Origin: Erythrobasidium yunnanense
Lineage: Eukaryota > Basidiomycota > Cystobasidiomycetes > Erythrobasidiales > Erythrobasidiaceae
Length of the DNA stretch: 64,000 bases
Reading direction: 5' to 3'
Assembly: GCA_001600175.1 (NCBI GenBank)
Contig: BCJC01000003.1
Span: 868,001-932,000 of the forward strand
Part shown: positions 55,312-61,807 of the stretch, piece by piece
Layout of the letters: every line of letters starts with the position of its first letter
Position numbering within the stretch: position 1 is the first letter of the stretch
Program-made: the position numbers and the translations under genes
The notes under the pieces: generated by a model
Databases searched by the model: none
Told to the model about the DNA's origin: nothing
Seen by the model: only the letters and a program-made list of their open reading frames with translations

Positions 55312-55737
55312 TCAAGCCACGCTGCTAGTGGCTAGAGGCGCCATACCACCTACTGCAGCTGAACTAGCAGCGGATCCCGAAATCTGTACCGGCAGTACAC
55401 ACTGCGACCTATCTAGCCCCGATGGCGCTATCGCAATAGCAGCACCCTGTTCCACACACACTGTCCCTCTAGCACATCCAACCGCTTTCCATCCATTACT
55501 CGTGCAAGATGTTCCCTTCCATTTGGTGCATTGTTCAAGACCAGCTTCTGCGGAGGCACTGCATCTCCATGCTTCACTGCAATCTACAAACCCTCCTGAT
55601 ACGCCCGTAGCCGGGCAGAAAGAGGATACCTTGCGCGGCGCAAAGGATCGGAACCCAAGCGGGGCTGCTGAAGTTTGTAGAATGACACTGGCCATGATAG
55701 CTGCCGTAAAGACTGAGGCGGTCTTGGTTGAGAACAT
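55312..55737 (-). CDS. Cysteine-rich secreted protein 1 (effector-like), no introns
   Basis: I do not recognise a named family. The single exon gives 141 aa from ATG 55737. An N-terminal signal peptide is evident (MFSTKTASVFTAAIMASVIL then QTSAAP). The mature part has eight cysteines: FCPATGVSGG, FVDCSEAWRC, LEQCTKW, TSCTSN, AVGCARGTVC and SQCVLP. It ends in a short Ser/Ala-rich tail. The same cysteine frame and the words GLDR and GCA.GT recur in the gene at 56565, so the two are paralogues. Small secreted Cys-rich proteins in plant- or animal-associated fungi often act as effectors or adhesion factors. That role is inference. An in-frame upstream ATG at 55839 would bury the signal peptide and was not used. 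Confidence 0.78.
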   Translation of the reverse strand: MFSTKTASVFTAAIMASVILQTSAAPLGFRSFAPRKVSSFCPATGVSGGFVDCSEAWRCSASAEAGLEQCTKWKGTSCTSNGWKAVGCARGTVCVEQGAAIAIAPSGLDRSQCVLPVQISGSAASSAAVGGMAPLATSSVA

Positions 55738-56020
55738 AACTGCAGTGGATGGTTTACGGTGAGGATTGTGGATGGTGAAGTGAGTGATTGTGTGCGGGAG
55801 ATGTATTGTGTCTGCGCCTGGCGGACAAGTGGGTTTCAAATGAGTGAGTGTTGAGAGTCCTCAGTATGTTCTGAGTGATGTTTGATGTTATATGTTGATC
55901 AGGATCAAGCCCAGGCAACGCAAACGTCCAGGTTTTAAGCCGCACTGGTGACCCTTCAAATGCTGCACTCAACGGGGTCATCAAGGTCCAGGGAGACCTC
56001 CGGTTTCTAGATAGAACGGT

Positions 56021-56564: not shown

Positions 56565-57176
56565 ATGCTATCTATCGTCTGGTCGATCGTTCTTTTGGCA
56601 GCAATTACAGAAGCAGCACCCACACTGTCTGTAGTCCCGGCCGCTCGAGCGGGAGAGTGCCCAGCGATGGACCCTGTCAAAGGTGGTTACTTCGTCAATT
56701 GTAGGTGGTAAGATCGATGAAGCTCCCTGAATTGCGTATGAATAGCCGAAATTTAGGTACGCAAGCCTATAGGTGCAATGAAGACACGAATATGGGGTTA
56801 GACCAATGCACGGTATGGTCGGGTCAAAATTGCACAAAGTGGGCCAACATCGGTTGCGCGGAAGGAACGTGCTGCACGGAGAGCGTGAGTCTATACATTC
56901 GTCTAGCTGTAGCACAACTACTGAATATGCTACATATATATTTAGGGTATTGTGGTGCTTATAGCACCTGAGGGGTTAGACCGAGCATACTGTCTTCTTC
57001 CTGGTCAGATCGCTGTGCCGGACAATGGTGAACCAACCTCTTCTATGGTCAAGACAACTTCCGAGATCACCACTGTTCCTCATTCCAAGCCTACAAATCT
57101 TCCTGAAACTACCCACTTGACAGTACTGCCTAGCATCAAGAGTCTTGCTGAGGCTTCTACAATTTCTTCGCTCTAA
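56565..57176 (+). CDS. Cysteine-rich secreted protein 2 (effector-like), two introns
   Basis: A paralogue of the gene at 55312. Exons 56565-56700, 56757-56884 and 56946-57176 give 164 aa with all phases closing. The signal peptide is MLSIVWSIVLLAAITEAAPT. The mature part has nine cysteines: ECPAMDP, FVNCTQAYRC, LDQCTVW, QNCTKW, IGCAEGTCC and AYCLLP. Eight line up with those of gene 1, and the ninth makes a CC pair. A Thr/Ser/Pro-rich tail of about 55 residues follows, which might be O-glycosylated. There is no clear GPI signal. Its last 20 coding bases overlap the end of the methyltransferase gene on the other strand. The role is unknown. Confidence 0.78.
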
Positions 57177-58135
57177 TTACCCAAAGAGGATCGCCTTTCG
57201 AAGAACGCTCAAGCACATTCACTATCTCTATATCACCATATAGCTGCCCAGGCTTGATCTCTTCCGTTGTGTTCTGTGTACCCGCGAAATGGAAGTAGTC
57301 TGCTACCATATCACATCTTTCAGGTTCACTGACACGAAGCCACCGGCCGACGACCTGCACAACATAGTCAGCAACGTTCTGTGAAGTCTATTAAGACTAA
57401 CCTTTGTTGGGAAACATCTATTCGAGAAAGCCAGATGTACAGTTCCGCCCGGCTTCAGGATCTTTGATAGATCTGCTAGCAGTTCCCGGGGTTTGACAAG
57501 ATAATCTATACTGACACTGCAGATGGCAGCATCGTATGGTTCATCTTTGCCAAGTTGTTTCGATAGGTGCCCTGGGTCTTCGTTGAGATCGAGTAACAAG
57601 TACTTGGTCAAAGCTCGATTCTTCGATAGCTCTTCGTTATTCATCCCAACTCCGACTACATAATAGTTATCGGGGCCCCTGTCTTCAGGCAAATGCGATA
57701 TCCAGCTTGACGCAAGATCCAGCACCCGCGGTTTGCGACCCGGTTCCGGCTTCGGTAGCACCGAACCATAGTAATCTGCAGAGAGAGGTTTAGCGAAGAC
57801 TCTACGTCCTGATGGAGTTTGCCTATACCGGATAGATGTGCGATGCATCGATCATCGACTGCACGTGACGCGTTAATGGCCATTATAAGTAGTACGTCGA
57901 GGTCTTACTGACTGTGTGTCACAAAACGCGGTGAGGCATAGAAGTCAGAGTCGGAGCTTGGGTCCATCCGCTGGAAGTCGACTGCTCTGTATGGCCATTT
58001 TGCCGGGAAAGACCTTGTTCGGATTTGATTGGCACTGGCTGCCATGGTAGTGGTAGTAGACTTCGTGAAGTAACGGACACCAAGATAAGCAGCTGAAGAT
58101 ACAGCTGCAACGATAGCCGAAGATCTCGCAAGCAT
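57157..58135 (-). CDS. SAM-dependent methyltransferase (class I) with N-terminal hydrophobic segment
   Basis: Exons 58135-57913, 57858-57829, 57775-57402 and 57354-57157 give 274 aa. A class I methyltransferase core is seen: RKPRVLDLASSWISHLPE (motif I, with the usual Gly-rich loop reduced), VVGVGMNNEELSKN, then LLLDLNEDPG, AAICSVSIDYLVKPRELLAD and the post-core strand KPGGTVHLAFSNRCFPTKVV. The substrate is unknown. Similar fungal proteins are annotated only as SAM-dependent methyltransferases. A hydrophobic stretch near the N-terminus (AIVAAVSSAAYLGV) could be a membrane anchor or part of a targeting signal. Exon 2 is only 30 nt. The start ATG 58135 was chosen because upstream frame codons lack another ATG. 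The stop overlaps cysteine-rich gene 2 tail to tail. Confidence 0.8.
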
Positions 58136-58290
58136 CCGCAGGAAGGAAAGGAAGGGCGAGAAGCCATGGAAAGACAAATAGTACGCGAATCTTGCTATGT
58201 GATATCGTGTAAGATAGCCGTAATGGTGTGAATCATGCAGATTGGAGGGCTGCTAGATCAGGCACAGCAAGAAACGATTCTACGCGTCGC

Positions 58291-58507
58291 CATGTCTGGG
58301 CAGTCATTACTGCCAGGCAAAGCAACATCAGACCGAAACTCAGTCTCTCCGAACGGATTCTATGTGTCGCCTATGTCCAACTTGCATACTTCAGTGTGAG
58401 GACGCTTCCGTATTATTACCTGGGTGTTGAGGATTTTCGTTTGTTGTCGCATTGGTGCTGCTAGGATATATAAACGGGAGATTTGCAGTGCTACAGTGTA
58501 TAATGTC
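58291..58507 (+). pseudogene. Inverted partial duplicate of the 3' end of the Zn2Cys6 gene
   Basis: This segment, read on the plus strand, matches the last 36 codons and about 110 bp of 3' flank of the Zn2Cys6 gene at 58698-61807, which is read on the minus strand. By my count there are about ten substitutions and no gaps over 216 bp. The copied coding part (58292-58399) still reads MSGQSLLPGKATSDRNSVSP and ends in TGA where the parent has TAA. It lacks everything upstream, so it cannot encode a functional factor. Seven differences fall in the coding half, four of them changing amino acids, and three in the non-coding half. That pattern fits neutral drift or recent conversion rather than selection on protein. 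Confidence 0.85.
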
Positions 58508-58805
58508 AACGTATGCGTTCGCGCGAAAGATCGAGAAAGAAAAGTCAAGCAAATAAAGAAGGTAGTCAAGAAAACCCAGGTTCCTCAAAGACATTATGCA
58601 CTGTAGCACTGCAAATCTGCCGTTTATATATCCTAGCAGCACCAATGCGACAACAAACGAAAATCCTCAACACCCAGGTAATAACACGGAAGCGTCCTTA
58701 CATTGAAGTATTCAAGTTAGACACAGGCGACACATAGAATCCGCTAGGAGAGACTGAGTTTCGGTCTGATGTTGCTTTGCCTGGCAGTAATGACTGCCCA
58801 GACAT
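58291..58805. repeat. Long inverted repeat, arms about 216 bp, loop 82 nt
   Basis: The left arm 58291-58507 and right arm 58590-58805 are reverse complements at about 95% by my count, separated by an A/G-rich 82-nt spacer. The right arm overlaps the last 36 codons of the Zn2Cys6 gene and its immediate 3' flank. The left arm lies upstream of the methyltransferase start codon. Transcripts of the factor that extend about 400 nt past its stop would contain both arms and fold into a long hairpin. Confidence 0.88.
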
Positions 58806-61800
58806 TGCGAAACCAGGATAAAGGTCGGTGGGAGGAGGGTTGAAATAGGCATTCCAATCGGCATCGATCTTTGCAAAGGAATTGAGTAATGAGGATGAAG
58901 TGAGCGGATCGGGTACTGCAGCCTGCATGATTGCATCGAGTCGATCTGCTCCTTCTGTTGAAAAGACCATGTTGTTGTAAGGATAAGGAAGATTCGAATT
59001 GGTCGGCTGTACGTTGTTGTTGATTTGCTGCATGTAGAAATCGTGCGCCTTGGCCTGGGCCGAATTGTCGAACTCGTTATTTGGGGATGTGTTGAGCGCC
59101 CCAGGTAGCATGCAGCTGACGCCGTCGTTGCCGATGGCACCTGTGAACAGCTCTCCATTCTTGTAACCCTGTAGTCCAGGCGGCAGAGTCTGAGGAATAG
59201 AAAGACATGCCATAGTACGTAGAAGCTGCGCTTGCGGAATAGCAGGGAAGTCTTTGTTCGGCGAAACCAGCTCGTAAAACTCGGCTGACAGCTCCAGGAG
59301 GCGCATAAACTTGGAGGCCGGTAGCAATGCCCTCGAAGGGAAGCCAACGCTGTAGAGATCGTTTGTAATCTCCGGTGCCATATCGAGATCGCAATTGATC
59401 AGGTTTTGCGCTCGAAGCTGAGCTAGGAAGAGAGGAGGGAACGCATAGACGATAAGGAGGGAGAAGTCGGGCGCGCTTGAATGTACTCTCGACGCTTCCG
59501 GGTCCAGTTGCAGAGGAGGGCGATGACCAGTCTGCGGATCTCTAGGCGCCCATTCGCATCGTCTTTGGCCTCTATTGTCGTCTCTACTTTGGTTGCTGAG
59601 GAAATAGAGTATCTCTTCGGCTGCACTGACAGCAAAGCCAAGACAATGCGATTCTTCCGAAGTCAAGGTGAATCTGGTGGTGTTGAGATCCCATTCCTGG
59701 CCTCGCGTCTCCAGCTTGCGGCGAATGTACCATGTCCTGAAGACGTCTGCATTGAGCACTACCCTAGCAAAGGGTACAAAGACGTTGAGGAAACTGCAAG
59801 CTATAGGGTCGCCATGCTGCTTAGCCTCTTCAATAAGGGGCCGCCAGTAGTCACGAAGTCGATCGATCACGGCGTTGGCACGGTAGAGCGCTCGGAAGTC
59901 CGTTCGCTGCGTCCCATTCTGCATTGCTACGATAGGAACGATAGCCGCACTATCGATAGAATGGTCAGCTCAGAGATTCGCCTTATTTCTCGACTTGATT
60001 GACATACTAAAGCTCCACTGTTGCTGCGAGTCTTACGTCCCCAGGCTTTGCTTTGATGCTTGCGAAAAGCCGCGTGACACGTAAGACATCAGCTGGATCA
60101 AGTGCTGGAGCTTTGCCTTCTGCGAGAGCGGCTCGACTATCGATAAGGTTGATCCATAGCCATAACCGGCAAGCGTTGGTGCTGCTTCTATCCCTTGGAT
60201 CTGGGGCAGCAGCCTTCCTACCAAGCCCGAGAAGCTGAGAAATTCGTAGCGCCAGACCTCCTAGAACGTAGCCGGAAGATGGATTAAGCTTGGAGTGTGC
60301 CTGAAGAGTTGCAAACCCTGCAGGTCCCAGTTGCATCTCGCTTCCGCATCTGACAGGCTTCCAGGTGATGCAGATCAAGAGTCCGGTGAGAAGGTCGACA
60401 CTCAGCTCGGCCGGGCTGGGTGACACAACCAGAGGCGCCAGCGATTCGACCAGTGTAGTGACAATGGCATAATACTTGCGCAGGCCATTCTCGCCTTGAG
60501 GGACATAGCAGAAGTAGGAGGCCACGGAAAGAATTGCGTGGAACAGGAAGGTCGACCGCCTGCGGACGTGATACATGTTCCTGTCTGTATGTGGATCTAG
60601 TGGAGGCGTCCATTGCACACATCGGGTGAAGAAGCTGAGGCATATGCCAAAAGTGTCCGTTAATTAGAGCTGTCACGTCCCGAACGGGCATGCGGGCTTA
60701 CAAATCAAACAGCTGTTGAGCTTCCTCGACAGTCACAAAACCTCTTGAGACTGCATCTGGGACATCAGGCTCGTAGTTTGCTGCTATGCTTCCGTTAGCG
60801 CGAGGACTTGGCGAATCGCTGCCAGTCATCGAGAAAGGACTAGCCGGGTTGCCCATCATGTTGTCGAGACCTTTGATGGCATTGGTGACTGCGCTGATTG
60901 GATCTCTTAGATCGCCAGGCGTCGAATCGTTCATTGGGATCTTGACATCGTGGTCGAAACCGACTGCCGAGTGGCTAACATGAGGTATCTGCGAAGGTGA
61001 GCTAAGCCTCGTAGCAGCGAGCTGTTCTTCAATGCCTCGTAGTCTCTCTGTGATGACCCGTAGGCTGAAAACGTATTTGTCAGCTGAAGGAGTTTGATCG
61101 AGCAAGCCAGCTTACCTTTGAAGAACGGCCTGACTTGTCTCAGGATCAGCAGCTGGCGCTTTCGCAGTAGTCTTCTTCGGTTGTCTAGGCTGCTGTGACT
61201 GCGCAGGCCCATCTTTCGAAAAGACGCATTCCAGCTTGTAGCTAAACGTGCGATCCACAGAACTGGGAATCAGACCTTGGTTCGGAAGCGCATAGCTATC
61301 GCCTTACAGTTGACATCGTTCGCATGGGTGTTTTGAAGCGCCAGAGCATCTCTGCTTGACTGCCCTGCATTGCTGACAAGCCTGGTAATGTACGAAAGGC
61401 GGAGTAGGGAGAGATCGGGTGGGGAGGGGAGCAGAGTATCGATGTATCAGCGCTGGGCTGCACGCCTCCCTTGATAGTAGCATTACCCTCACTCCTTTGC
61501 TTCTCGAGAACTTTGTAGGCTGCTGATCTGAACCTCCGGCTGTACTGGTGCCAGCGTTCCCGTCAGGCTGGCCATACTGCGAAGACTGATCCCCAGCGGA
61601 GTCTTGAGGGTGTGATAGACCGTTTGCGACTAGACTGCCGTTACTGGGCTTGTTATTGAAGCCATTATTGCTGTTGCTGCTGCCTTCATTGCTGGCTGCT
61701 GAACCAGCGTAGCCAGACGTCGCCGGATTGTACGTGGACGGCGTGAACATCTGAAAGCCTTGCGCTGGCGAGCTCCTCTGATGTTGCTGATGCCCAGCGT

Positions 61801-61807
61801 CGCCCAT
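58698..61807 (-). CDS. Zn2Cys6 (Gal4-type) transcription factor with fungal TF domain
   Basis: Exons 61807-61493, 61381-61308, 61241-61116, 61064-60702, 60634-60008 and 59949-58698 give 918 aa. The binuclear zinc cluster is at residues 106-135 (ACQQCRAVKQRCSG, then HPCERC and LECVF) with spacing C-x2-C-x6-C-x7-C-x2-C-x6-C. The intron at 61492-61382 directly precedes it, and a second splits it before the last cysteine. A coiled-coil-like stretch follows (LRVITERLRGIEEQLAATRL). The middle region (FTRCVQWTPPLDPHTD onward, GGLALRISQLLGLGRKAAAP, CRLWLWINLIDS) is the fungal-specific TF domain. The Gln/Asn-rich N-terminus and the C-terminal tail look disordered. The last 36 codons lie in the right arm of the long inverted repeat. 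Confidence 0.9.

What the first reader, a model, noticed from the sequence alone, without database searches (positions are those of the whole stretch)
58291..58805. Self-targeting long hairpin formed by inverted duplication of a transcription factor's 3' end
Two arms of about 216 bp, with roughly ten mismatches and no gaps by my count, flank an 82-nt loop. The right arm is the end of the Zn2Cys6 gene plus 3' flank, and the left arm is an inverted copy. A transcript of the factor running through its own stop into the left arm would form a long double-stranded RNA matching its own coding sequence. That layout is what natural hairpin-RNA loci that feed Dicer look like, and would make the gene self-silencing or its expression depend on where transcription stops. 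The non-coding half has fewer differences (3) than the coding half (7), so the preserved feature is not the protein.
Basis: partly seen in the sequence, partly recalled or inferred. Interest (0 to 1): 0.85.

Follow-up and report, generated by a model that had tools for sequence, protein, structure and literature searches.

The report
Inverted copy of a gene's end
A fungus carries, just past the end of one of its gene-regulator genes, a mirror-image copy of that gene's last 216 bases; if both were transcribed together the RNA would fold into a long double strand, but nothing in the sequence shows that this happens or was selected for.

Summary
The structure is real and as read: arms 58292-58507 and 58590-58805 (216 nt, 10 substitutions, no gaps) flank an 82-nt loop, far beyond chance and found once in the 20.9-Mb genome. 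The right arm is the last 35 codons, stop and 108 nt of 3' flank of a 918-aa Zn2Cys6 gene whose one detected homologue is in Cystobasidium minutum (Basidiomycota). The left arm is an inverted copy lying before the next gene on the same strand. The genome has a Dicer with two RNase III domains, PIWI matches at three places and RdRP matches at two, so RNA through both arms could be diced. Nothing examined shows that such RNA exists or that pairing is maintained: coding and non-coding halves do not differ significantly (7 v 3, p = 0.33), and the seven transitions leave G-U pairs about equally on both strands (4 v 3). Most likely it is a young local inverted duplication (template-switch type) without a dedicated function, acting as a hairpin only if transcription passes 191-406 nt beyond the stop. 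Self-silencing is possible and untested. New instance of a known kind.

The parts
58590..58805 (-). Right arm, probably the original: last 35 codons and TAA stop of the Zn2Cys6 gene (58698-58805) plus 108 nt of its 3' flank (58590-58697)
   Evidence: that it is the original is inferred from continuity of the reading frame
58508..58589 (.). 82-nt loop, unpaired with the arms; holds an AATAAA on the + strand at 58552
58292..58507 (+). Left arm, probably the copy, in reverse complement; 10 of 216 positions differ; + strand still reads 35 codons and a TGA stop (58292-58399)
58287..58291 (+). Outer junction of the left arm: TCGC shared with the other arm's edge, then one mismatch; possible microhomology
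   Evidence: interpretation inferred
58698..61807 (-). Zn2Cys6 gene, hand-made model of six exons, 918 aa
57171..58135 (-). Next gene on the same strand, methyltransferase-like (Pfam matches below curated cut-offs); start near 58135 or 58045 and the 3' end are my reading of the open frames

Best explanation
A young local inverted duplication. In one event during replication or break repair (template switching or microhomology-mediated repair; inferred) the end of the Zn2Cys6 gene and its 3' flank was copied in reverse complement 82 bp downstream, before the next gene. The arms have since diverged by about 5% (10 of 216). Shown: structure, single copy, RNAi genes in the genome. Inferred: that the right arm is the original and that there is no dedicated function. 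Consequence, from general RNAi knowledge: if transcription of the gene enters the left arm (191 nt past the stop) or crosses it (406 nt), that RNA snaps back into a stem of up to 216 bp which Dicer could cut; only RNA reaching more than about 300 nt past the stop pairs with the coding end.
For: Gap-free arms of a sequence found at one place only. The right arm continues a reading frame conserved with C. minutum up to 12 residues before the arm. Differences are 7 transitions and 3 transversions, not significantly concentrated in either half and without clear preference for pairs kept on one strand. A 4-nt match (TCGC) with one mismatched base at the outer junction, as microhomology might leave. 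Template switching is described as making reverse-complement repeats able to form hairpins in a single event (PMC8794818, abstract and outline seen).
Against: No relative's DNA could be examined, so neither the empty site, the direction nor the age is shown. The gene's last 35 residues align only weakly with the C. minutum tail, and the LEFT copy aligns slightly better than the gene's own end: shuffles reaching the score are 306 and 105 of 2000 for the gene copy and 179 and 50 of 2000 for the left copy under two gap penalties. No indel among 10 substitutions is what a pairing constraint would also give. There is no matching base at the inner junction.
Confidence: 0.62

Rival explanations
1. 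Working self-silencing hairpin: read-through transcripts of the Zn2Cys6 gene are diced and the siRNAs hold down its own mRNA, so that its level depends on where transcription stops.
For: Very stable fold; 84 possible perfectly paired 21-mers, 39 of them against the coding sequence, none seen in 330,596 other letters in hand, partly overlapping loci; Dicer, PIWI and RdRP genes. In Drosophila simulans some new hairpin loci lie beside their target gene (PMC10317233, passages); read-through over inverted repeats silences genes in plants (PMC3608071, passages; PMC6196474, abstract and outline).
Against: No transcript or small-RNA data; no sign of selection for pairing; TATAAA/TATATA about 70 nt past the stop could end the mRNA before the left arm (function recalled); better-supported fungal hairpin small-RNA loci are short (PMC9757828, passages).
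Confidence: 0.2
2. The inverted copy matters at the DNA or promoter level: it moved or doubled promoter or terminator elements (both arms hold TATATAAA) between the Zn2Cys6 gene and the next gene and changes the expression of the latter, with no RNA hairpin role.
For: The left arm ends about 150 nt before a likely start codon of the next gene; TATAAA occurs once in each arm, in opposite orientations.
Against: No expression data; AT-rich words of this size arise by chance.
Confidence: 0.1
3. Assembly artefact from a fold-back chimaeric read.
For: Inverted repeats with short spacers are a known form of such artefacts (recalled).
Against: Ten base substitutions and no indel between the arms, a unique 82-nt loop, unique sequence on both sides leading into two genes, inside a contig of 2.34 Mb.
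Confidence: 0.04

Closest known systems
Inverted-duplication model for new hairpin small-RNA genes (Allen et al. 2004, seen only as a reference and recalled; PMC3237417, abstract and outline seen)
   Same: A hairpin whose sequence is an inverted duplicate of a gene segment.
   Different: Here one arm is the end of the source gene itself, in cis; no small RNA is shown.
Drosophila hpRNA loci born beside their target, such as D. simulans hp58 (PMC10317233, passages)
   Same: Long inverted repeat derived from a neighbouring gene's exon.
   Different: hp58 is a separate transcript with shown Dicer-2-dependent repression of its target; here no separate transcript and no RNA evidence.
Plant read-through silencing loci: rice Low glutelin content1 (Kusaba et al. 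2003, seen only as a reference in PMC3608071; details recalled) and soybean inverted-repeat CHS (PMC13051633, search listing only)
   Same: Transcription running from one gene into an inverted copy is the proposed source of double-stranded RNA.
   Different: Those silence gene families and were found by phenotype; here a single-copy gene, no phenotype, another kingdom.
Template-switch mutations creating hairpins (PMC8794818, abstract)
   Same: Reverse-complement copy placed close to its source in one event.
   Different: Parent and empty site not seen here; a 216-nt copy is long for an RNA-gene stem.
Fungal milRNA hairpins (PMC9757828, passages)
   Same: Possible Dicer substrate in a fungus.
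   Different: Those are short; this has 216-nt arms and an 82-nt loop.

Membership tests
hpRNA / endo-siRNA hairpin locus | long, nearly perfect inverted repeat able to fold | tested here: met
   216 nt, 10 mismatches; -419.5 kcal/mol
hpRNA / endo-siRNA hairpin locus | transcribed through both arms, giving Dicer-dependent 20-25 nt RNAs | not testable with these tools
   no RNA reads available
hpRNA / endo-siRNA hairpin locus | host has Dicer and Argonaute | tested here: met
   Dicer domains at C7:37,922-40,465; PIWI matches at three places. Whole genes not modelled
fungal milRNA | short hairpin, under 20 nt between the duplex arms in the better-supported loci (PMC9757828) | tested here: not met
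   82-nt loop, 216-nt arms
fold-back or MITE-type mobile element | several dispersed copies | tested here: not met
   one place in the genome
template-switch inverted duplication | reverse-complement copy close to its source | tested here: met
template-switch inverted duplication | ancestral empty site in relatives | not testable with these tools
   no DNA of a related fungus could be reached; only one homologous protein
conserved RNA structure | substitutions biased to keep pairing | tested here: inconclusive
   10 differences in one genome; 4 G-U on the gene's strand, 3 on the other

The most novel reading that the evidence does not exclude
A transcription-factor gene in an RNAi-equipped basidiomycete carries its own cis-acting silencing hairpin gated by poly(A)-site choice: short mRNAs are stable, read-through mRNAs become Dicer substrates and yield siRNAs against the coding end, giving negative feedback on the gene.
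Probability: 0.13. Interest if true: 0.75.

Novelty: new member of a known kind. Interest (0 to 1): 0.36.

Why it matters
[quoted passage not shown] This locus is a concrete single-gene candidate in a genome that has the machinery, so one small-RNA library would decide it. If nothing is made from it, it is still a clear picture of how a proto-hairpin locus can arise at the end of its source gene.

Tried and rejected
Mobile fold-back element: rejected, one place in the genome. Assembly artefact: unlikely, substitution-only divergence. 'Non-coding half better kept, hence an RNA function': rejected as evidence, p = 0.33. Selection for pairing through G-U changes: none visible, 4 v 3. Polarising the copy with the C. 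minutum tail: weak alignments only, the best of four at 50 of 2000 shuffles and for the left copy. Bacterial promoter/terminator scan: not meaningful for a fungus, not used. Organism by rRNA: not answered. Literature: a search with Cystobasidium and RNAi terms counted 4,696 papers holding four of five terms; none of the 8 listed held the word Cystobasidium. One search counted 40 papers and listed 8, none holding Basidiomycota. Searches were likewise seen as lists of 7 to 20. These lists do not show that nothing is in print, and I make no such claim.

Corrections made on checking: the Dicer's RNase III domains lie 1.3-2.3 kb beyond the dimerisation domain; the TATAAA/TATATA words near the stop, which speak against read-through, and the slightly better tail alignment of the left copy are now told.

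Full report
OBSERVATION. Searches give arms 58287-58507 and 58590-58810 (221 nt, 11 mismatches, no gaps) with 82 nt between; the 216-nt core (58292-58507 / 58590-58805) has 10 mismatches. Complementarity ends abruptly on both sides. RNA of the gene's strand over 58280-58815 folds into one long hairpin at -419.5 kcal/mol, against a mean of -147.5 (sd 6.7) for 100 shuffles, none as low. The sequence was found at one place in the host genome, 20.9 Mb in 10 contigs. The window (contig C3:868001-932000) has no other inverted pair of 30 nt or more within 3 kb. In 264 kb (the window plus 20 stretches of 10 kb, all 20 from contig C1) one other place shows inverted pairs of at least 40 nt, a repeat-array element. 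Such repeats look uncommon, but about 98.7% of the genome was not examined for them.

GENES. A hand-made model joins six exons of the - strand into a 918-aa protein, 61807 to 58698, with a Zn(2)-Cys(6) cluster above Pfam's cut-off (27.8 v 21 bits). One protein passed E 1e-3 among the 7,998 candidates scored: a 1062-aa protein of Cystobasidium minutum MCA 4210, 62% identical over 86% of the query. The host is therefore probably a cystobasidiomycete (inference from one protein). By eye the two proteins agree up to DADWNAYF, 12 residues before the arm begins; the tails beyond align weakly, the left copy a little better than the gene's own end (best case 50 of 2000 shuffles as good). So that the right arm is the original rests on the continuity of the gene, not on the tail. 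The left arm lies between this gene and the next gene on the same strand, whose middle resembles methyltransferases below the curated cut-offs and which may start near 58135 or 58045 (open frame; my reading).

DIFFERENCES BETWEEN ARMS. Seven of 10 fall in the coding half and three in the other half (108 nt each; Fisher p = 0.33). Of the seven, four change an amino acid, two are silent and one turns TAA into TGA, so the left arm still reads as 35 codons and a stop; there are 27 synonymous and 78 non-synonymous sites. Seven of 10 are transitions; in RNA of the gene's strand four become G-U pairs, in RNA of the other strand three. None of this departs visibly from drift.

COULD IT FEED DICER? The genome encodes a Dicer: dimerisation and helicase domains and, 1.3-2.3 kb further along the same strand, two RNase III domains. 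PIWI matches lie at three places (seven matches) and RdRP matches at two (six matches); some of the matches on C2 contain stop codons, from introns or decay, which I did not resolve. The paired arms offer 84 perfectly paired 21-mers, 39 of them antisense to the coding sequence, none seen in 330,596 other letters in hand. A transcript must run 191 nt past the stop to enter the left arm, about 300 nt to reach the part that pairs with codons, and 406 nt to complete the stem. Of the eight patterns tried on the gene's strand between 58700 and 58135, AATAAA, ATTAAA, AATATA, TTTTTATA and TATGTA are absent; TATAAA (58628) and TATATA (58630) lie in the right arm about 70 nt past the stop, TATATA recurs at 58472, and AATAAT is at 58417. 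An mRNA ending soon after the first of these would not hold the left arm; one ending near the last would pair its 3' flank but leave the coding end free. These words are no evidence of use.

MECHANISM. The most economical account is a one-step inverted duplication. Template switching is described as making reverse-complement copies that form hairpins (PMC8794818, abstract). The outer junction shares TCGC with one mismatch between it and the arm, as a microhomology landing site might; the inner junction shows none. The consequence follows from general RNAi knowledge: where read-through RNA occurs, a stem of this length is a Dicer substrate. Whether it occurs is unknown. In plants, read-through across inverted repeats does cause silencing (PMC3608071, passages; PMC6196474, abstract), and in Drosophila simulans some new hairpin loci lie beside their target (PMC10317233, passages). 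In fungi, the better-supported hairpin small-RNA loci tend to be short, with under 20 nt between duplexes (PMC9757828, passages), which this is not.

VERDICT. Observation confirmed; self-silencing possible and cheap to test, but unproven. I put 0.62 on a young inverted duplication without dedicated function, 0.2 on a working self-silencing hairpin (0.13 for the fuller, poly(A)-gated feedback version), 0.1 on an effect through promoter or terminator elements, 0.04 on artefact. As a kind of thing it belongs with gene-derived inverted duplications; what is unusual is its position, in cis at the end of its own source gene, in a fungus that has Dicer.

Noticed in passing
L019:5260-5942 (G000:C1:305,260-305,942); related places C7:45,270-45,731 and C7:531,784-532,337: A repeated element of about 0.5-0.7 kb with two opposed arrays of ~41-bp units, each holding a CCAA-nnnn-TTGG palindrome and a GCT..TAG.AGC palindrome, around a shared core (84% identical over 470 bp between the C1 and first C7 copies). 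The C7:45-kb copy seems bounded by terminal inverted repeats (TACTGGAACCCAAAGAG and its complement, by eye), like a non-autonomous DNA transposon.
   Followed up: partly
window 55312-55860 (-) and 56565-56971 (+): Two neighbouring open frames on opposite strands seem to encode related small cysteine-rich proteins with signal-peptide-like starts (...QCTKWKGTSC... and ...QCTVWSGQNC..., by eye).
   Followed up: no
window 58235-58399 (+): The reading frame copied into the left arm stays open upstream of the copy, giving 54 codons from an ATG at 58235 to the TGA; about 19 extra open codons, probably chance (by eye).
   Followed up: partly
G000:C2:2,964,519-2,965,158 and C2:490,004-492,168: PIWI and RdRP matches with several stop codons inside the matched stretches: introns or decaying copies, not resolved.
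   Followed up: no
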